The position numbers were made by a program, and so were the translations under genes. Source: Morchella semilibera (Eukaryota; Ascomycota; Pezizomycetes; Pezizales; Morchellaceae). Taken from it: a stretch of DNA of 64,000 nt. Numbering within the stretch: the first letter of the stretch is position 1; each line of letters starts with the position of its first letter. The DNA lies in contig CM018605.1 of assembly GCA_009192285.1 (NCBI GenBank), forward strand, positions 1,388,530-1,452,529, in the 5' to 3' direction. Shown one piece after another: positions 14,351 through 57,563 of this stretch. Below the pieces are notes generated by a model. The model worked only from the letters and a program-made list of their open reading frames with translations, was not told the DNA's origin and searched no databases.

Positions 14351-15095
14351 AGTGGAAAGGGGGGGGCGTTTTTTTTTGTAATTTTTTTGTTTTTTTTTAA
14401 ATTTGTATTTTGTAGGGCTTGGTATGGTTATGGGGGCTGTAATAATAGATATCCTTGGTTTGGTTTTTGGATTTGACTTTTATTTTGATTTTTACTTCAT
14501 TGCGTTGTATTGTATTGTATACTTATACTTGCTTATACTTATATGTAGCTACATACTCATCTACATGTAGCTACGTTGTAGCTTATCCATAATGGGCGCT
14601 ACTTTGTTTGTTAAGAGAAAGGATACCAATCTTCCCTTAATTTCGCTGATCTATACAACACTTATACCCCCCCTAGAGGAACTGAACCCCAATCAAACCA
14701 AACCCAAGGGTACACCATCTTCTACTATGTACTACTCTAGATTACATCCTTTTGCGCCCCGCAACCTTATTGGTTGAGGGTGACGGGGGTATTGACTAAG
14801 CACGACAATATCCGCCGAAGGCCGCCATATGAAATGTCTAACTGGCGGGGTGCGTAGAGAGAGGATTTGTCTACCACTGTTCCCTAAAATTTACAGTGCT
14901 AGTCTGTGCTAGTGGGTATTCTAACATATGTTAGTTAATGTGTTTCGAAATATTTTGAATTTGAAATCAATTTGGAAAACAAGATCTGTATCTAATAGTA
15001 CACTAATAAAATAATACAACTAACTTAAAATATTGGGAAAAAAAATATATATTAATTTTTGACAAACAATTTAACTGGTGGGTCGGTCAAATGAT

Positions 15096-15258
15096 AAAAA
15101 AAAGCCGCGGCAACAAAAGACTTACGTGAAGAAGTACTCATCCCTCAAGAGCGTCGCTACCATATTGGGCTTTCTCATCACTGCTCCCACCAGGATTTGA
15201 ACCTGTCGTGGTCATATGACGAAGCCCAGTGTATTACCACTAGGCCACGCCACGATGC
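15096..15258 (-). other. tRNA-like / SINE-like Pol III element
   Basis: On the minus strand an A-box-like TGGCCTAGTGG (15247-15237) is followed 33 bases later by a canonical B-box GGTTCAAATCC (15203-15193). A run of eight Ts lies at 15103-15096. I could not pair a 7 bp acceptor stem, so it is not called as a tRNA gene. A tRNA relic or SINE fits better. A similar A-box context (GTGGNCGTGGNNTAGTGGT) occurs at 58,258-58,335. Confidence 0.4.
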
Positions 15259-15741
15259 TTTTCTTTGTGTCGTTGTAGTTTATGAGCCCCCCCCATTTGT
15301 TGTGGAAAGATCGATCTCCTTGGCAACGCATCAAATATTGTGCTTGATACACGAGGCATGCACATATGTAAGTACTATGGCTCGAGAAGCTATGGAGGAT
15401 AGGTGTGTAAACTTCGACATTTGCAGCCAATTAGTCTATAGAAACTAGGAGATCTACTCCCATAATTGTACTAACGCCTAGCCTAACGGTCTAATTCCCA
15501 TACAAAAAAGATTCCCCTGTGGTTTACACACCCACCCCCTATGCCTTCCCGCGCCATATGTACATGTAGTATCCGACACACCACAACCTATGGCCACACG
15601 ATTCAGGGGCCACGAGCCACAGAGTGACCGTCTGCGCCGCACTCACAAATCTACATGTATGCATATGGCCCGCCAAAAAAAAAAAAAAAATCAGTACGGA
15701 CGACTATGTATGGTGCACTTGCCACACGGAGCAGTGATTGT

Positions 15742-17324: not shown

Positions 17325-19544
17325 GACGCCATCCCGGGCCACTCGTACACCCCGTTCATTCGGGCAGTTTATATAATCTGGTTTGTGATTGGTTGAAGGT
17401 GAGACATTTATGTCATGAGTTGCATATTCCAAGGAAATCAGTTGCACCTGGACCCTTGGGTTAAAGCGTACCCCGCAGAGCCCATCAAGCTGAGTCTCTT
17501 CAACGCAAAATGGTCATCAGCAACAATACCTTTCGCAGAGAAGCTCAATTGGCTGAGGCTGAACGAGTCTACAAAACAAAGCCAGATTATAGCTCTATAA
17601 GGAAAACAGCAGCATGTTTTGATTTAGTGAAGCCAAGCACTCTTTTGGATAGAATTAATAAGGGAAGAAGTAAAATCCGTGATATTGAAAATAGACAGTA
17701 TCTCTCCGGTATGAGATCAAAACCACTCTCAGGCTAAATGTTAATCTATTTATTACTAATTCACTAATAGATAATGAAGCCAAATATCTATTTGAGATAT
17801 GCGACCGTATGTCAGCACATAATTTTTCTGTAACCATACCGATATTCACTGAGTATGCGAATGGTATCCTACGTCAGAAACTCAATAAGCAAGAGGATAC
17901 TATTCGTGTTGGAAAGAACTGGGTTACACAATATTTTCAACGATGGCACGATGTTTATACAACTATACGCTCTAAACAACTTCATCATTCCCGGGCACAA
18001 GCGAATCATGATCGACATTTTTACAACGATTATTTCGAAAAATTGAGAACTGCACTTACCGATTACGAGATTCAAGGTCAAAATTTCTACAACCTGGATG
18101 AAAAGGGATTTCGATTAGGTGAAGCAGTACATTGTACTGTTATTATTAGGCGGGGCCATCCAGAGCAAGGAGAGCTATCGGAAGATGGATCAAAGGAGAT
18201 GATCACAGTCCTAGAGTGTATATCAGCTGATAATTGGGTTGCAAAACCTTTAGTTATCTATAAAGGTAAAAACTATAATTACGGTTGGTCTTTTAAAGAT
18301 GGATACCTCTATGGATATTCCGATTCTGGTTGGATAGATTCAGAGCTTTATTCGACATGGATAAAAAATGTTTTTGAGCCCCGATACAGCCATACGGTTA
18401 GTAACCACTCAAATACCAGTTATAAGTATCAAAAACTAACATAATTAGAGCTAATGGCAAATGGAGATTGCTTTTAGTAGATGGGTTAGCTGCACATATG
18501 AGTTTTGAAACTGTTGAATATTGCTGGAAACATAAAATTATTGTTTTATGTCTTCCCTCGCATGCGACACACTTGTTACAGCCACTTGATGTTGGCGTAT
18601 TCCGTCATTATCAACATTGGTATGGCTTAGAAGTGGCAGCGCATTCAAGACATGGAAAGACTGGTATCGGCAAACATAATTTCATGGAATTTCTAGAACC
18701 CGCACGCCAAAAAACATTTCAAAACTCTAATATATGTAGTCAAGCCTTCAAATCAGCTGGTGCGTGGCCATTTGATCCAGAGGCAGCAAAGCGTCGAATT
18801 CCAGAACCTCCTCCACCTCCCTGGACACCAGTAGCATGGTCAATGCCCTTAGAAAATTCATTCCGGGAAGCTATTACACTCCTTGAATCCTATGAAAGGG
18901 CAAGATCTCGGCATTCTGTTGACTACAGTTGTCTACCGGAGTGGGCACAACTGAACTCTACCATGTTACACGACTCTCTAAACCAATTGCACCAGGAGAT
19001 TGAAAGGCAGCGAGCAGAAATATCCTTTCTAACCTATGAAAAAGATAAAACCCAAAGAGGTAATATCAACTTTCCTAAACATCCTCTTCTAAGAATTTAG
19101 CTAACAGGAAACCAGAACTTCAACGCATCCGCAACTCCAAACCTAATAGGAAAAAAGTTTTTACTGAAAGTAGACTGTGTACAGGAGAGTACATAAAGGA
19201 ACAGAAAAGAAAAAGAGATGAACAGGACGAGAGAAGTACTTCCCATGTAAATAGAACAAAAATATCCCTAGGGGTCGTGGTGGAGGCCGTAGTATAAGAG
19301 GGGTTTGCCTTAGTGGAGGGCAACCCGCAACCTCTATGATTAGAGATCCTCCCACAGAACTGGAATTAGGACACTTTAGCGAGGTTGGACAGTAAACAAT
19401 GGGCCTGTAGTATCCTCTATTAGCAAAAGATACATTAAAGTAGATCGCTACCATACCAAGAATTGATTCCAAGTCCAATAGGAACCCGGTAGTTCTTGGC
19501 CTTGTTCGAGTGAACGGGGTGTTCGAGTGGCCCGGGACGGCGTC
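17325..19544 (+). mobile_element. pogo/Fot1-like DNA transposon, complete with TIRs and TA target site
   Basis: A 2,220 bp Tc1/mariner-superfamily element. Terminal inverted repeats of 38 bp at 17325-17362 and 19507-19544 start GACGCC and contain TCCCGGGCCACTCG; I count three mismatches between them. Both ends are flanked by TA (17323-17324 and 19545-19546), the target duplication of this superfamily. It encodes one transposase with three predicted introns. The interior is clearly more AT-rich than nearby host genes. Confidence 0.93.
17510..19297 (+). CDS. pogo/Fot1-family transposase (DD35D)
   Basis: This cut-and-paste transposase appears open once three introns are spliced. Exons are 17510-17708, 17771-18400, 18451-19059 and 19101-19297, about 544 residues, close to the Fot1 size. 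Residues 1-70 form a psq-type helix-turn-helix (SIRKTAACFDLVKPSTLLDR). A CENP-B-type HTH follows (RVGKNWVTQYFQRW). The DDE_1 catalytic core has D in FYNLDEKGF, D in LLLVDGLAAHM and D in LLQPLDVGVF, the last two separated by 35 residues. The C-terminus is Lys/Arg/Glu-rich (EYIKEQKRKRDEQDE). All splice phases agree, though the 50 and 41 bp introns are short. An Arg-Gly-rich stretch lies just past the stop in a neighbouring frame, so the true end could be near 19395. Confidence 0.85.
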
Positions 19545-48808: not shown

Positions 48809-49980
48809 TATCTATGGATATTCGAGGGAAAGATAGGTCTTGCGTGGATAGAGCGATACCGGCCAAAATTTCCATCTGTTTGTTTGATTTGCATCGGAGT
48901 ATCGGGTTTTGGGCATTTTTTTCCAAACATCTTTTGTTACATCTTTTTGCTCCTTTCTTTTTCTATTTTATTTGTTTGCGCGTCTACGACAGCTCTACTC
49001 CACTCGCCTTGAGCAACAAACTCTCCTCAGGTAATGTGCAAATAGTTAATATTCTCTCCCCTACGGCTGAGGGGGTGAAGGGAATGAATTGGGTATGTAT
49101 TATGGGCCAACGATAAGTTGGATGATTTTACATCAGTGTCGACGATTCTTTACAACGATCGGTACTATTATATTGGGCAGGTTTGCATGGGTCGGGTATG
49201 GGTAGTTGTTTTCTTTCTTTTACTTCACTTTCTTTTGTCCGTTAATGGCCTGTGGTACATAAACGATTGGGATGTATTTATGTGCGCTTTGTAGCGATGT
49301 AAACTGTGCTGGAGTTTATCGGGGTCTTCTTTTTTTAGGCATAACACTCTGCTCTAGTGTAAGATATCATCAGTCCTCTCATTATTTTATTTCCTGTGGT
49401 TTTGAGGGTTTTCTCGGGCGATATGAGACTACATGTATACGTAGTTGGGGTTGGGCGGTTCTCGGACGATAGAGATTTTAATTTACAGGGTAGTCAAATA
49501 TATGTAATTGTTGGGTCTAGACGCCCAGTCATTGGTTGTCACTCGACACCCAAGCGTTTCCCAGCAGGGGATAGTATATAATATCAAGGAAGCGCTGAGC
49601 CCCCTTGAATACGAGGATTGTAACATGTGAGACAGAATTGAAATTGACTCGATTATGGCCCCTAATGATAATGATGCATTGATATTAGAGTAGCTAGCTG
49701 CTTGTATGGAGATATGATTCCTTTAACGCCGCTTCGCGCTAGTCCCTTTTAGACTGCGGGGGATTTCGCTTACTAATCCCAATGTGGAGTGACGAAAAAT
49801 GCCCTCTTACGCAACCCCGACACCGGATTTCCGCTGCAGCTTCACCGCCACCCCCCCCCCCCCCACAACAACTCTCATCATCCACATCTCATCTACATCT
49901 CATCTCATCCTCACAACCACCACCATAACCCCCCCGCCCTGAATCAATCCGCCCCTTGCAGGGCTCAGTTCGTCACAGCA
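48809..49980. other. Zn2Cys6 gene 3' flank and YTA12 promoter
   Basis: No gene seen. It contains T-rich 3' flank, one TACATGTA (49430) and, just before the YTA12 ATG, a C run (49851-49864) followed by CATCT repeats. An open frame runs into YTA12 from 49789 but is C/H-rich leader sequence. Confidence 0.6.
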
Positions 49981-52785
49981 ATGCTTCCGCGATCCCGAAT
50001 TCTCGCGAGGCATTCGGCGGCGCCGACTCGACTCTTGTTCCAGCGGTCCTCAAAACTTTGTCTTCGTACGCCGGGATTGGTGGCTCCTCTAATTGTTTCC
50101 GGTGGTGTTGCAGCGCGGAGGCCGTATGCTACTGTGAATAAAGGGCCTGGCGAGGGTGAAGATAACAAGGACAAGAAGATTCCTGGTTCCTCGAGAGCAC
50201 CCCCGATCTCGGAATTCAAGCCTGATCAGTGGGATAAACTTCACCCAGAGCACCAGAAATTGATAGCTCTAATTATCCGCGACCCCGAGGCAACATGGAA
50301 CAGTTGGCCCGTGGACCAGAGGAAGGCGTTTATTGGGATGGTAGAGGATGCGAGCAAGAAGGCGGAGAAACTCTCCAACCTCCCATGGATGCCCAGGGCT
50401 ATCAGGGATATGGCATCTCTTTTTGGTTTAAGCTCGGGCCCCCAGAATGTACAGAATAAGAAGGAGGAAGGCCAACAGCAAGGAAAGGAGGAATCAGAGA
50501 GCAAAACTGAAGAAGAGAGTGGAAAAGAGAAGCAGGAACAGCGAGGGAAGCAGGGGGAAACCGAAGGAAAGGGATCTGATGGGAAAATGCCATTTGGGAT
50601 TCCTAATGACGGCAAAGGTGGACCTCGAGAGTTCAAGTTCGATATCACCAACCTCATTGCAACAACCGTTATTTCCTTATTTGTATACCAGTTTCTCGTT
50701 CCTGGCCAGGAAGCTCGGGAGATCACCTGGCAGGAATTCCGGAATACTTTCTTTGATAAAGGTCTTGTCGAGAAGTTAACTGTCGTGAACCGTAGCCGGG
50801 TGAAGGTCAACCTTCACAGGGCGGCTACTGCGCAAATGTACCCCGATTCACCCGCCGCCGGTAACCCACAGTTTTACTATTACTTTAGCATTGGTTCTGT
50901 GGAGGCTTTCGAACGACGATTGGATGATGCGCAGAAGGAATTGGGTATCCCCAGTTCCGAGCGGATTCCTGTGGCCTACAAAGATGAGATCTCTTGGACT
51001 GGAACTGTTCTATCGTTCGCCCCTACGCTTCTTGTAATAGGGTCCATCTTCTGGTTGTCACGCCGTGCCTCCGGCGGCGCTGGTGGACAAAGTGGTATCT
51101 TTGGGATTGGAAAATCTAGGGCCAAACTTTTCAACCAAGAAACCGACATCAAGACTAAATTCAAAGATGTAGCTGGTATGGATGAGGCAAAGGTGGAAAT
51201 TATGGAGTTCGTTTCGTTCCTTAAGCAACCTGAGCGCTTCCAGAAACTCGGTGCTAAAATTCCTCGCGGTGCCATCCTATCTGGCCCACCTGGTACTGGT
51301 AAGACTCTTCTTGCAAAGGCGACTGCTGGGGAGGCCCAGGTTCCTTTCTTTTCAGTATCCGGTTCTGAATTCGTTGAAATGTTTGTGGGAGTTGGTCCTT
51401 CTCGCGTCCGCGACCTGTTTGCGAAGGCAAGGAAGAACGCACCATGCATCATCTTCGTCGATGAAATTGATGCTATCGGAAAATCCCGTGCGAAGTCCAA
51501 TTTTGGTGGTGGTAATGACGAACGGGAATCAACACTTAACCAACTTCTTACAGAAATGGACGGGTTCAACACAACCGAACAAGTTGTTGTTTTAGCGGGT
51601 ACCAACCGTGCCGACGTTCTTGACAAGGCATTGATGAGACCTGGGCGGTTTGATAGACACATTACGATAGATCGCCCAACCATGGATGGAAGAAAGCAAA
51701 TCTTCCTCGTCCATCTTAAGAAGATTGTAACCTCGGAGGACATGGAGTACCTGAGTGGAAGACTTGCGGCGCTTACCCCCGGATTTTCAGGGGCTGATAT
51801 TGCTAACTGTGTTAATGAAGCCGCCCTTATTGGTTTGTTGCCAATATTCACCCAAGACAAGGGTCTAGCATACTAATAATGTCCTAGGCGCTCGAGGAAA
51901 CGCCGAGACTGTCGCTATGACGCACTTTGAACAGGCTATTGAGCGTGTTATTGGTGGTCTGGAGAAGAAGTCACTTGTCCTTAATCCAGAAGAGAAGAAG
52001 ACCGTTGCCTACCATGAAGTACGACCCTTCTCTAGGGCGGGGTGTTTCTTCTGCATGATTTACTGACTAGACAGGCCGGCCATGCTGTATGTGGTTGGTT
52101 TTTGAAATACGCCGATCCACTTCTCAAGGTCTCAATTATTCCCCGTGGTCAAGGTGCACTTGGTTACGCGCAATACCTTCCTCCGGGAGAGCAATATCTT
52201 ATGTCTATGTCGCAATTAATGGACCGCATGGCAATGACATTGGGAGGCCGCGTCTCCGAGGAGATCCACTTTGACACAGTAACCTCCGGAGCCTCTGACG
52301 ATTTTAACAAGGTTAATCGCATGGCATCCGCCATGGTTACAAAATGGGGAATGAGCAAGGATATTGGCTTTGTTTACTATGACGATGATGAAGGCCAAAG
52401 ACTCCAAAAGCCTTTCTCAGAGGAGACAGCACGCCGGATCGATAAGGAGGTAAAGAGACTTATTGATGAGGCCTATGTTAGGTGCAAAACCCTCTTGACG
52501 GAGAAGAAAGAGCTTGTGGGATTGATTGCGGAGGAGCTTCTGAGGAAGGAGGTATTGGGTAGAGAAGATATGATCAGGATTTTGGGCAAGAGGCCGTTTG
52601 AGGAGAACAAAGATTTCGAGAAGTTTTTCAATAAGGCGCATCGAGTCAGCTCTCCACCGTAAGTGATATCCAACTTTCCAAGCCAACTATCTTACCAAAC
52701 CGTGCTAAAATCAAAACACAGCCCATTCCCAGAAGACCAACCTCTAGTCAATGAATCCGGCAATTCCCCCACGCCCCCATCATAA
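49981..52785 (+). CDS. YTA12: Mitochondrial m-AAA protease subunit, YTA12/AFG3-like
   Basis: An inner-membrane AAA metalloprotease that degrades misfolded membrane proteins and matures some imports on the matrix side. Exons 49981-51832, 51888-52018, 52075-52658 and 52722-52785 give 876 residues. Order: Arg-rich presequence ([19 protein letters not shown]), charged Gln/Glu/Lys linker, FtsH_ext segment between two membrane spans ([16 protein letters not shown] about 224; [18 protein letters not shown] about 342). The AAA+ module has Walker A GPPGTGKT (about 434), Walker [10 protein letters not shown] and arginine finger RPGRFDR. The M41 protease zinc site HEAGH (about 660) is split exactly by intron two, and GASDD carries the third ligand. 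The long N-terminus fits Yta12 better than Afg3. The start at 49981 gives the presequence; upstream in-frame sequence is leader-like. Confidence 0.95.
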
Positions 52786-53783
52786 ACAAACCCTACTCAA
52801 ACTATTTCATTGTATTTTTTTACTCCCTTCCTCGACATTGACTGGCTGGTTTCTTTTTTGTATATAAATGTGACATAACCCTTTTTTTTCTCAGCTACCA
52901 TCAAGCCAACTAAGCACCGCTCAATTCTTCAGCTTCTCGGTTTCTTTTATCAATTTTCGTTGCATAATTTTTCCGGGAGAGAATTTTTGGGTTTGAGGTT
53001 TTACTTGATGTGCGTGTTTAGATGGTCTACCGGGAGCGAAAGAAGTGTGGAATTGATAGAAAAATGTGAGCGCAGCAAATTCCGAAGGTGATTAATGGGT
53101 TTTATATGTTTGGTCGATGGATATCTTATAATCAATTAAGTAAGCTGAAGGGGCTCCTTCTAGTGAGGTCTGAGTTCATGTACCGTAAAAAAAAGAAAGG
53201 ACTCGTACGTGGTTTGGTATAATATGTTGCTTTTTCGTCACCTCGATCGCGAGTCATAAATTTAGCCTCGAACAAGAGAGTTGCTTTTAGAAATAAATCG
53301 GGTCTAGACCTTATCGAAAAATGCGTATATGTCTCCAGTTTTAGGAGCGCTTCGGGTTCGTAACCTGGTTTTAGGGGGTCTGTTGTACTACAGCCCCGGA
53401 GGGAGCTCCGGTTTCTCATACAGTCATTGCCTTGAGTAATCTGCTATACCCGCATGGGTATACGTAAATGGTGTCTGGATTAAAAAGGCTCTGTGTGAGG
53501 TTTGATACAGATTTTGTTAATTCCCTTTAATAGGGTCGCGATTGTGTCAGAAGATGTTAACTACTCTGACCCAGGATAGGGGCAAATCAGCCCCCCCCCC
53601 CCGGCACTCTGAGAACAGAAGCTCGTAAGGGCTTTTGAAATGGCTGTGGGATTGACCGTTTCGTGGAGGTCAATGATCAGTATTGCGTGATATGCTTGCT
53701 CAGCGCATTTCAAATTTGATGTATTAGTAAGGAAGGACCTCAAACACGTGATCCCGTTTTATTATCAGTAAGGTGTACTAGTA
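52786..53783. other. YTA12 3' flank, gene-free
   Basis: No gene seen; AT-rich 3' flank with a C run at 53590-53602. It ends at the first of two MITEs. Confidence 0.6.
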
Positions 53784-53867
53784 CTACGGGGGTAGGGGAA
53801 AGTCTCCAGAACTGCGGCTATGGTTGCAACTGACCATAGTTCTGGAGACTTACCCCTACCCCCGTAG
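53784..53867. mobile_element. 84 bp hairpin MITE, copy 1
   Basis: Non-autonomous element flanked by TA on both sides (53782-53783, 53868-53869), so probably mobilised by a Tc1/mariner-type transposase. It is almost wholly an inverted repeat: about 30 bp arms beginning CTACGGGGGTAGGGG with a single mismatch, around a 24 base loop. It is related to the copy 75 bp downstream: same length, same CTACGGG start, and GCGGCT and TTGCAAC / CTGCAAC in the centre. It does not share ends with the Fot1-like element at 17,325. Confidence 0.9.
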
Positions 53868-53942
53868 TACAGTAAGTAGTATTTATAATAAACCCTACAC
53901 ACTTAGTCACGTACTTAGGTAACACCGAAAAATTTTCATGTA

Positions 53943-54026
53943 CTACGGGTGTAGGGGTAGGTCTGTAGACAGTGGTCGCGGCTGCAACAGCAGTAGGTGT
54001 CTACAGACTTACCCCTACACCCGTAG
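53943..54026. mobile_element. 84 bp hairpin MITE, copy 2
   Basis: Same family and length as the copy at 53784-53867, flanked by TA (53941-53942, 54027-54028). Arms begin CTACGGGTGTAGGGGTAGG and continue to about 28-30 bases. The inner arm sequence differs from copy 1 (TCTGTAGACA against TCTCCAGAACT) but each copy is self-complementary, so arms changed in step or the two are distinct subfamilies. It lies 201 bases upstream of the NACHT-ankyrin ATG. Confidence 0.9.
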
Positions 54027-54227
54027 TACATATAAGTGGCAAATATCATATCATTATCGGTAGGTGGAGTCAGGTTCTGAAGACAACAACTTCAGCTCTT
54101 GTTGTGGGAAAGCCAAGCCAAGGAGGAACTATATCTCCTGTGCCACGCGCTCACGCATCTCACGCATCTCACGAAGCGGTCAACCAATCCGGTGCACCTA
54201 AAGTGCAAGGATAACATCTTCCGCTCA

Positions 54228-57200
54228 ATGGCAGAGGTACTCGGATTAGCATCATCAATCATTGCTATAATCCAAATCACAGCAAAGATAACACAGCTAG
54301 CTTATCAGTACACGACCGATGTTCGGGGGGCGCCCGAGTCCATTAAGGTGTTTCTGGACGAGATTCGGTCACTCACCTATATTCTTAATGCCCTTGACGA
54401 GTGTCGTAAGAAAAACCCCCATCTAGGTGCGATCCAGAAGCTTGAGAGGCCGTTGAATAAACATCTAGTGGAAATGAACATGCTTGCAATGAAACTTGAG
54501 TCGAAGATCAACCCTAGCTGGTGGAGAAGAACTATTACCAGACTGAAGTGGCCGCTGAATGACGGTGAGATGACTGAATATTTGGCTAAGATTGAGCGGT
54601 TCAAATCGATGATTATGATAGCCATAGGGACAGCAAATCTGTAGGTTTTACCGTCGCGGCTTAATATATATATTAACTAATAATGTTTCAATCAGGAAAG
54701 GTCCCAACAAGTGGCTGTTAGGGGTGCTGAGCGGGGGATTGGAAAGATGCAGGGTATGCACTATTTGATGGGCGGGCCCGAGGGGGTGCCCCCAACTGGT
54801 AAGAATTGCTTAACGTGTTATTGATACATAAATATTCCACTCCGAAATAGTATCGATGACTCTGATTCCCTTCGGGAGTCTTGAGGGCCTGAGGGTGTCT
54901 TTGGCCTAATTAGTTCTATCGATCACAAACAGCAGTACTCAATTATATAGCTAACTAACATCGGAACATCATTAGATGAAAGGCGCAGCTTGGTCCTTAA
55001 CTGGTTATACCCATATTCACCCGACCAGAAACATGCCGAGATCGTTAAAAGAAGACAAATAGACACTAGTCGGTTGATCCTGGAAACCTCGGAGTTCGGG
55101 AGGTGGATAGCAGGTGATGCTGGTTCACGGATTCTATTAGTTCTTGGTATAGGTAAGTAACTCTCTACGCACAAATGTTTCTAAATATCTATATGTACTA
55201 ATTTAGTATAGCCGGGGCCGGCAAAACTTTCATGACGTATGTGTTCACTGAAGCCCGCATACAACACCCAAATTAAGTATGAAGATGGGCTTTAGGTCCT
55301 TTATGATCGATTACTTGTCCCGTCAACCCTCACAAGAGGTTTGCGGGGTGGCTTATGTTTATTTCGATTATAAAAACCCGGATTTACAGAAACCTACGTC
55401 CATACTTGCAAGTCTAGGAAAGCAGTTAGCCTGTCAAACGCAACAAGCACTACCCAAAGAGCTTGATTACGTATACGATGAGCTTTCGTACCAGCAAAGA
55501 CGACCCTCTATCGAGCAACTATATCAGATCCTTCTTCGACTTACAAGACACTTCGACAAAACCTTCATCGTCTGTGATTCTCTTGATGAATACCAAGGCC
55601 AACGAAGGGAATTATTACCGTTATTTCGCCGAATGGAGGGGAACGGTATTTGGTTGCTATTAACTAGCCGCGAAGACTGCGTTGATGTAAAGGAATTTTT
55701 CCAGGATTCGACCAAGGTTAGATTTTGTGTAACCAGCGAGGTTATAGAGAACTATATTGAACGAAGAATAACGGGCCTCAACATACCGGGGAAGGACAGA
55801 GGTTTGGTTGTCTCTGAGCTCACGGGTCGTGCCGAAAGAATGCATGTAACCTCCTAAAATCCACATGTAATATTTACTCATAGCCTCCTAGATTTTTGCT
55901 TGCTTTCTCCAGCACGAAGTACCTATGTGAGCAGATGGGAAGAGGGGGTGATCTGGGGCAACCCTCCAAAGAAAGCTCCGCTACAAGCTATAGCTCCCTC
56001 GCACACACTCACTCGGGATATCTATTTGAACTTTTGGGGCAACTCGAGGTCCCCAAAGGTCCAACTTCAAACCCGGATAGCCCTCTGGATAGCACTTACA
56101 AATTCTACATGGCTGCTTTCCGCGCACAACCACCTGAATCTGTTGAACTGGGGCTCAGCGTCCTCTTATGGCTTGTCAAAGCCCGACGAACACTCAAAGT
56201 ATCTGAGCTACAACTAGCGGTTTCCATGCATACGAGGAAGCGAAAATGTAAAAACTTTCACGAAATAGATCTACCCGATAGGAAAATGATACTCGATGTT
56301 TGTGCCAATTTCATTTTGTATGACGAGGAGGATGATACCATCAAGCTTATTCACTACACGGCCCAAGAGTTTCTCCTTAAAAACCTTATGATCCCTAGTG
56401 ATGCAGACTTGAAGGTAGCTCTGGCCTGTATCTCCTATCTCTCACTTGACATATTTGCGCAGGGTGCATGTACCACCAATAGCTCTCTGGAAACACGGCG
56501 AAAGCAACATCCCTTTCACAAATATGCTTCCGAGAATCTGTCGTATCATCTCAGGTCATGCAATGAGGCCAGTACGGAAAATGCTGTTTTCAGTTTCCTT
56601 AAAGAGCCAGGGTGCGTGAAATCATACCTTCAGGCCCTCCACTGTAAGGCGCCGCCATCTAGTACTGGGGGGGAGCCAGAGTACCACGATCAATACCCTA
56701 AGCAGCAAACATCACTCCACATCGCAGCTACTTTAGGGCACCTTACTGTGACTCAGAAGTTGCGGAGGGGGGGCGCTAGAATAAATGCCCTCGATGACTA
56801 CGGAAAAACTCCAATGCTGATAGCTACGATGGAGGGTCACAAAACGATCGTAAACCTACTACTCCAAAAGAGAGCTGACCCCTCAATTCCAGATAAGAAC
56901 GGTATCACCCCGCTACATGTGTCGATTTCTCAAGGACATGGAGCAGGATCTATGCTTAAGTTATTACTTGACAGAGGCGTGAATCCATCTACCATGGACC
57001 ATAGAGGCTGCACACCCCTTCATTGGGCGGCTTCTCAGGGACTCGAACCAGAAACTCGGATTTTGCTTGGGCACGGTGCCAACATCTCGAGTACAGATCT
57101 GAAGGGATGGACTGCCCTGCATTATGCGGTAAAAAACGGACACGAACCACTAGTTCGGGCCCTACTTGAATGTGGCGCCAGTCCATCCTCTATAGATCAA

Positions 57201-57563
57201 GATGGAAGAACTGCACTTCATTTAGCAGTGTTGTATAAGCCAATACTTGAGTTATTGTTAAAGAAAGGCGCCAATATCACAAGCGTAGACAGCCGTGGAC
57301 GAACAGTGCTGCATTGGGCATGTTATTTGGGGGGTTTGGACGTAGTTAATTTGCTCTTGGAGAGTAATGCGGATCACTCGTACGTAGATGATGAAGGACG
57401 TACAGCACTACATTATGCAGCTTCTGAGGGCCACGATCCCATTGTAGAACTTTTGAGAGAAGTGGGTGCCGATCTTTCAGCCACAGACAATAGGGGACAA
57501 ACAGCATATCAGGTGGCTGTGGCAAGAAATCATGCATCGATCATTCAACTGTTGGAGCCTTGA
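54228..57563 (+). CDS. NACHT-ankyrin STAND protein (fungal NLR-like), possibly with one frame break
   Basis: An NLR-type receptor candidate for non-self recognition, about 980 residues. Exons: 54228-54640, 54696-54798, 54976-55152, 55212-55236, 55296-55845 and 55884-57563. The N-terminal helical domain (MAEVLGLASSIIAIIQITAK to RLKWPLNDGEMTEYLAKIER) resembles the STAND N-terminal domain PF17111. Next come the pre-NACHT signature (NWLYPYSP, IVKRRQIDTSRL), Walker A GIAGAGKT across intron three, and Walker B FIVCDSLDEY. A winged-helix-like part (LKVSELQLAVSM, IHYTAQEFLL) precedes nine ankyrin repeats (TPLHWAASQG, TALHYAVKNG, TALHLAV and so on). The first splice junction does not keep phase by one base, and the last intron would be only 38 bp. 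It may be intact with a sequence error, or a recent pseudogene. Confidence 0.8.

What the first reader, a model, noticed from the sequence alone, without database searches (positions are those of the whole stretch)
53784..54026. Two 84 bp self-complementary MITEs side by side upstream of an NLR-like gene
Both have length 84, TA on each side, CTACGGG ends and nearly full-length hairpin arms, but the inner arm sequences differ between copies while staying self-complementary. That is unusual for simple descent by mutation. They sit 200-450 bases from the start of a NACHT-ankyrin gene, so they may influence its transcription or feed small RNA production.
Basis: partly seen in the sequence, partly recalled or inferred. 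Interest (0 to 1): 0.7.

Follow-up and report, generated by a model that had tools for sequence, protein, structure and literature searches.

The report
Palindromic 84-base mobile DNA family
Two short palindromic pieces of DNA in front of a fungal immune-type gene are copies of a mobile family scattered through the genome, and its sub-types differ in the middle of both arms while the arms still match each other.

Summary
53784-53867 and 53943-54026 are 84-base, TA-flanked hairpins with CTACGGG...CCCGTAG ends. They belong to a dispersed MITE family: 93 exact-ended places in the 56.8 Mb genome, reversed-pattern control 0. The two copies are of different subfamilies, A and B; a third, C, exists. 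All share the outer 22 bases and the centre, so they probably had one 84-base ancestor. Between subfamily majority sequences 8 of the first 30 pairs differ; 6 changed on both sides and still pair. Inside subfamilies 9 of 158 changed pairs are compensated, 3 of 133 among copies with at most 9 substitutions. Settled copies thus decay one side at a time; matching returns in lineages that amplify. I read this as co-selection of two transposase-bound ends, with a hairpin requirement as the rival. No partner transposase was found in a partial search. The target is GTAC, remade at each junction, and copies cluster. An effect on the NLR-like gene is untested; in 20 loci MITEs are not nearer to long ORFs than random places. 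In passing: TACATGTA occurs 22,206 times, perhaps transposon excision footprints.

The parts
53784..53867 (+). MITE copy 1, subfamily A, 84 bases, TA at 53782-53783 and 53868-53869
   Evidence: 98% identical to C20:637076-637167 over 92 bases
53943..54026 (+). MITE copy 2, subfamily B, 84 bases, TA at 53941-53942 and 54027-54028
   Evidence: 97% identical to C4:1473026-1473122 and 98% to C12:738607-738697
53806..53813 (+). left inner arm of copy 1 (CCAGAACT), element positions 23-30
53838..53845 (+). right inner arm of copy 1 (AGTTCTGG), element positions 55-62
53965..53972 (+). left inner arm of copy 2 (GTAGACAG), element positions 23-30
53997..54004 (+). right inner arm of copy 2 (GTGTCTAC), element positions 55-62; pair 30/55 is G.G
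54228..54641 (+). first open stretch of the NLR-like gene downstream, PigL_N domain (neighbour, not part of the element)
   Evidence: PF17111 E=1.7e-11
55252..57560 (+). further open stretches with NPHP3_N (55252-55854) and ankyrin repeats (55884-57560); neighbour

Best explanation
The pair are two insertions of one non-autonomous DNA transposon (MITE) family that inserts at TA, preferring GTAC, and was moved in trans by a transposase that binds both ends. Shown: dispersed copies, TA flanks, GTAC preference, three subfamilies with a shared frame and matched inner arms, one-sided decay of settled copies. Inferred: the mover is an IS630-Tc1-mariner/pogo-type DDE transposase; positions 23-29 of each end are a recognition site that must be alike on both ends, so a lineage with a new site spreads well only once both ends carry it. 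The palindrome is then mainly two facing copies of one binding site plus the shared outer ends. Because an insertion into GTAC leaves G-TA-C at both junctions, each copy offers two fresh targets, which can explain neighbouring copies that share one TA.
For: 93 exact places, reversed control 0. TA on both sides in 76 of 85 copies, GTA...TAC in 66 of 85, against 221 of 3757 TA steps lying in GTAC in the window. Between subfamily majorities 6 of 8 differing pairs among the first 30 are changed on both sides and paired (23, 24, 25, 28, 29 and, by column majority, 8); within subfamilies 9 of 158; Fisher P = 5e-6, and 1e-4 if pair 8 is counted as unmatched. Within subfamilies 9 double changes are complementary and 1 is not. 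On a 20-copy alignment the covariation score is 0.128 against 0.045 shuffled (0 of 500) and at most 0.023 when slid. Of 21 short forms with perfect ends, by eye 19 have a deletion of their own and 2 share one, while 46 of 85 copies are exactly 84 bases. Six pairs of neighbours lie within 212 bases where 0.05 are expected for an assumed 113 elements; three pairs share one TA. The genome holds 96 DDE_1 and 69 DDE_3 matches.
Against: No transposase with these ends was found. 32 arm loci, read by eye over at most 250 bases, hold complete, short or broken MITEs or run into other DNA. Of 12 DDE_1 loci checked, five show candidate inverted repeats and none begins CTACGGG. Mismatches occur in several copies alike: A.A at 20/65 in 5 of 32 B copies, G.A at 8/77 in 9 of 32 B and 5 of 10 A copies, so pairing is not needed everywhere; pair 16 is mismatched in the A majority and pair 30 pairs only in A. 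Two copies at different places share one deletion junction (C1:6260343, C3:1102388; L129, L131) that removes the right inner arm, hinting that outer bases may be enough. No empty site was seen, so the TA duplication rests on flanks alone. Founder events are few and not independent of one another, and MAFFT reads part of the A/B difference as a mirrored one-base indel. In one search two of the 28 pairs given were out of register, and the number of pair types did not exceed shuffles (147 of 500 as high).
Confidence: 0.6

Rival explanations
1. The hairpin itself is selected: a single-stranded or transcribed hairpin is the mobile or processed form, as suggested for bacterial REPINs, so only pairing and length matter in the middle.
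For: For REPINs the authors report conserved ends, a middle whose length and pairing matter, and common compensatory changes (PMC3116915, passages seen). A similar pattern is seen here between subfamilies, and length 84 is the commonest.
Against: TA flanks and a GTAC target fit a DDE cut-and-paste element. One-sided changes show no clear bias to G.T over A.C (47 against 38), so no sign of an RNA-strand constraint. Copies with the same mismatches recur.
Confidence: 0.2
2. In-place correction: the palindrome extrudes or misaligns in replication and one arm is rewritten from the other, so both arms change together in each copy.
For: Nine complementary double changes against one non-complementary within subfamilies, where 4.3 doubles of any kind are expected. 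L152 shows three matched pairs. 6 of 25 changed pairs are compensated in the 5 most diverged copies.
Against: Among the 90 copies with at most 9 substitutions 3 of 133 changed pairs are compensated, so this is not the main process in settled copies.
Confidence: 0.1
3. Three separate autonomous elements with related ends each gave rise to one MITE subfamily by internal deletion; matching was inherited from their inverted repeats.
For: Subfamilies A, B and C are discrete in the inner arms; several related transposases in one genome are common (recalled).
Against: All three share length 84 and an off-centre block around GTTGCAAC, which separate deletions would hardly give. No such autonomous ends were found in a partial search.
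Confidence: 0.1

Closest known systems
Stowaway-like MITEs of plants (DcSto of carrot, PMC3695323, passages seen)
   Same: short TIR MITEs, some families fold into almost perfect hairpins, clustered insertions; TA target recalled
   Different: Conserved terminal motif there is CTCCCT, here CTACGGG; 60-72% AT there; 84 bases here
mimp / mFot5 MITEs of Fusarium (PMC3599309, passages seen)
   Same: fungal MITEs; mimp ends resemble those of the Tc1/mariner element Impala; several subfamilies; some in promoters
   Different: mimps are 200-220 bases with ~27-base ends; [quoted passage not shown]
REPINs of bacteria (PMC3116915, passages seen)
   Same: short hairpin with conserved ends, middle constrained in length and pairing, compensatory changes, extragenic
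   Different: bacterial, linked to RAYT transposases; TA flanks are not described in the passages I saw

Membership tests
MITE (non-autonomous TIR element) | short, terminal inverted repeats, too short to code | tested here: met
   84 bases, arms of about 29 bases
MITE (non-autonomous TIR element) | many dispersed copies in unrelated flanks | tested here: met
   93 exact places; of window 53500-54300 only the two elements with a few edge bases match elsewhere
MITE (non-autonomous TIR element) | target site duplication proven against an empty site | tested here: inconclusive
   TA on both sides in 76 of 85 but no empty site found in two searches
MITE (non-autonomous TIR element) | autonomous element with the same ends | tested here: inconclusive
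   none found; most of the 96 DDE_1 and all 69 DDE_3 places were not fetched
IS630-Tc1-mariner/pogo | TA target duplication | tested here: inconclusive
   flanks fit; no empty site
IS630-Tc1-mariner/pogo | mobilised by a DDE transposase that binds these ends | not testable with these tools
   needs a partner and an assay
Stowaway | terminal motif CTCCCT | tested here: not met
   ends are CTACGGG; motif from PMC3695323
mimp | 200-220 bases | tested here: not met
   84 bases; size from PMC3599309
REPIN | REP doublet linked to a RAYT transposase | not tested
   RAYT was not searched for
microRNA precursor (Rfam) | score above the family's gathering threshold | tested here: not met
   best 43.6 bits against gathering 100

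The most novel reading that the evidence does not exclude
A eukaryotic counterpart of REPINs: a minimal 84-base hairpin element in which the middle is selected for pairing and length rather than for letters, so that its subfamilies evolve like a structured molecule, and whose insertions rebuild their own target (GTAC) and so seed neighbouring copies.
Probability: 0.15. Interest if true: 0.7.

Novelty: new member of a known kind. Interest (0 to 1): 0.4.

Why it matters
The family gives a natural test of how inverted repeats stay matched: about 95 copies separate what happens in place (one-sided decay) from what happens in lineages that spread (matched change). If positions 23-29 are a recognition site, the subfamilies record switches of transposase specificity. 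The same copies also act as before/after recorders of other events, such as six-base insertions that make TACATGTA.

Tried and rejected
Long element with the same ends, through arms: one search gave 230 arm matches with up to 3 mismatches, of which 100 were listed. I fetched 32 arm loci (20, 12; the 13th region, L153, was a mistaken place without an arm). Read by eye, none showed a transposase; ten were complete copies with one altered end and were added to the set, several were short forms. One arm followed for 1.5 kb (L001) held no stretch between stops over 77 aa. Ends of six best-scoring DDE_1 loci and of six DDE_1 genes with long open frames: five of 12 had candidate inverted repeats, none CTACGGG. 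On contig C1 the listed 22 DDE_1 and 18 DDE_3 places are at least 23.7 and 6.5 kb from the nearest of 82 TACTACGGG sites.

Empty site: searches with C22:1695670-1696070 and with window 53500-54300 found no flanks without the element. Contig twins C9/C10, C12/C13 and part of C21/C22 are identical over 381-399 bases at 10 of 10 sites, so they gave no polymorphism; I dropped these 10 twin copies before counting.

Rfam microRNA hits rejected as sub-threshold hairpin matches. Literature: searches for the end sequences (37 papers hold a term, 20 listed, none on a fungal transposon by title), fungal MITE and palindrome terms, footprints, compensatory change. I saw search listings, and passages of four papers. 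That I found no report of this family rests on these searches alone.

Biases: copies were chosen by exact 7-base ends, so pairs 1-7 say nothing on conservation; the pairs beyond 30 are mostly unpaired in B. At least ten of the 44 insertions fall at three shared sites and need not be independent. The element number of 113 behind the clustering estimate is assumed.

Full report
OBSERVATION. The two elements are present as described. Each is 84 bases, CTACGGG...CCCGTAG, TA on both sides, and folds far better than 200 shuffles (z -11.8 and -11.4). They lie between open stretches with FtsH_ext, AAA and peptidase M41 domains (49777-52659, + strand; an FtsH-type protease gene) and a gene with PigL_N, NPHP3_N and ankyrin domains whose ATG is at 54228.

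THE FAMILY. The window belongs to a 56.76 Mb genome in 23 contigs, fungal by its gene content (inference). TACTACGGG-N56..86-CCCGTAGTA occurs at 93 places, the reversed control at 0; contig twins are included in the 93. I parsed 95 copies from fetched loci and the window, removed 10 identical twin copies and kept 85. TA stands on both sides in 76 of 85, GTA...TAC in 66 of 85. In the window 221 of 3757 TA steps are in GTAC, so GTAC is a strong preference. The pooled flank favours A-(T/A)-G-TA. In a search with window 53500-54300 only the two elements, with a few edge bases, match elsewhere.

SUBFAMILIES. Of 46 copies of exactly 84 bases, 10 are type A, 32 type B, 3 type C and 1 unassigned. They share the outer 22 bases, apart mainly from the variable pairs 8, 16, 18 and 20, and a block around GTTGCAAC in the middle. 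The inner arms differ: CCAGAACT (A), GTAGACA (B), GGCGACA (C). Window copy 1 is A, copy 2 is B. Shared length and shared off-centre block argue for one 84-base ancestor (inference). L034 has an A-like outer left arm on a B middle, so arms may also have been exchanged.

HOW THE ARMS CHANGED. With majority sequences of 95 copies (24 A, 49 B, 22 C; the 85 plus 10 with one altered end), eight of the first 30 pairs differ between subfamilies: 8, 16, 23, 24, 25, 28, 29, 30. Pairs 23, 24, 25, 28 and 29 are changed on both sides and paired. Pair 8 is so by column majority, but G.A is its commonest state among the 84-base A copies (5 of 10). Pair 16 is A.A in the A majority, and pair 30 pairs only in A. 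MAFFT prefers a mirrored one-base indel in place of 28 and 29, which is also matched. Inside subfamilies (pairs 1-29), 148 changed pairs are one-sided, 9 changed on both sides and complementary, 1 on both sides and not. By divergence, 3 of 133 changed pairs are compensated in the 90 copies with at most 9 substitutions and 6 of 25 in the 5 most diverged, which may belong to further subfamilies. Fisher P for 6 of 8 against 9 of 158 is 5e-6, for 5 of 8 it is 1e-4; shared descent makes these rough. So a settled copy does not keep its palindrome, and matched arms are a property of lineages that went on to spread. The small excess of matched doubles within subfamilies is partial support for correction or for unrecognised subfamilies. 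Check: on 20 copies the covariation score exceeds all 500 shuffles and all slid controls, pairs with a change on both sides reach the observed 6 in 13 of 500 shuffles, and pair types in 147 of 500; two of the 28 pairs that I gave there were out of register and paired in no sequence, and relatedness inflates the shuffle test.

MECHANISM. The most economical reading is that both ends are sites for one transposase: outer bases for cleavage and general binding, positions 23-29 for specificity. A change at one end alone does not spread well; the same change at both ends founds a subfamily. A hairpin requirement predicts the same for the arms but is less easy to reconcile with mismatches that recur in several copies at 8, 16, 18 and 20. 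Of 21 short forms with perfect ends, by eye 19 have a deletion of their own and 2 share one (L129 and L131), which suggests that losing the inner arms usually ends amplification, with one possible exception; many may simply have been deleted after settling. The mover is unknown: 96 DDE_1 and 69 DDE_3 matches exist, but of the 12 DDE_1 loci that I looked at none shows these ends.

CLUSTERING. Six pairs of neighbours lie 2 to 212 bases apart: the window pair (75 bases), L100 (212), L108 (sharing one TA), L104 with the short form C21:3338493 (sharing one TA), the two copies in L083 (C15:513207-513392, sharing one TA) and L150 (10 bases from another element's end). For an assumed 113 elements 0.05 pairs within 215 bases are expected. 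The direct search for facing ends 2-32 bases apart gave 6 places, of which 3 are of this family, and 6 for the control. An insertion into GTAC makes G-TA-C at both junctions, so every copy rebuilds two targets; this explains the shared-TA pairs, not the window pair. Clustered MITE insertion is reported elsewhere (PMC3695323, passages).

GENE EFFECT. In 20 loci of 5 kb no MITE lies in an open frame of 150 codons or more (random 18%), and the median distance to such a frame is 1188 bases against 1032 for random places. There is no sign of a promoter preference in this small sample. Lying 201 bases before the ATG allows an effect; nothing here tests one. [quoted passage not shown]

A SIDE RESULT. 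TACATGTA occurs 124 times in the 164,020 bases of the window and 20 MITE loci where 4.6 are expected, and 22,206 times in the genome against 3,723 for its reverse. In the sample it is dispersed and avoids long ORFs (2 of 124 inside, ORF cover 27%). MITE copies show it arriving as an insertion: in L088 CCATAGTTC has become CCATACATGTAGTTC. Of 44 clean insertions of 2 or more bases in MITE copies, 10 have the form TA-x-TA (chance 1.8%, P about 5e-9), although three are at one site and may share descent; 34 do not have that form. TA-CA-TG-TA is what I recall as a footprint of Tc1-like excision for elements ending CA...TG; DDE_1 loci L115 and L116 have candidate ends of that kind. Three library papers hold the word, all on Phytophthora by title (listing only).

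Noticed in passing
whole genome G000; in the window 14562, 15561, 15652, 19996, 20498, 20691, 20971, 21032, 21477, 31044, 31429, 33095, 43230, 44314, 49430, 58131, 58437, 59723, 61437: The palindrome TACATGTA is 27 times over-represented in the 164 kb sample and occurs 22,206 times in 56.8 Mb, mostly outside long ORFs in the sample, with little similarity of flanks. In some MITE copies it appears as a clean CATGTA insertion at a TA, so it may be a genome-wide layer of transposon excision footprints.
   Followed up: partly
G000 contigs C9/C10, C12/C13, C21/C22: Pairs of contigs carry the same MITEs at nearly the same positions, 100% identical over 381-399 bases at 10 of 10 sites compared; a C22 locus at 1.696 Mb has no full match in C21. 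Duplicate chromosomes, two nuclei or duplicate assembly.
   Followed up: partly
window 18199-18737 (+): Two DDE_1 matches in separate stretches (C3:1406728-1406919 and 1406979-1407266): probably remains of a pogo-type transposase gene.
   Followed up: no
L124, L137, L150: Other inverted-repeat elements sit inside or beside CTACGGG MITEs; in L124 an element with CTTGCTG...CAGCAAG ends is inserted at an internal TA and has TA on both sides.
   Followed up: no
window 15089-15342: A 254-base dispersed repeat, 87-88% identical to stretches of L024 and L042.
   Followed up: no
L075 (C11:680877-680960): A B copy in which one arm alone carries six A/T to G/C differences from the B majority; direction and cause unknown.
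   Followed up: no
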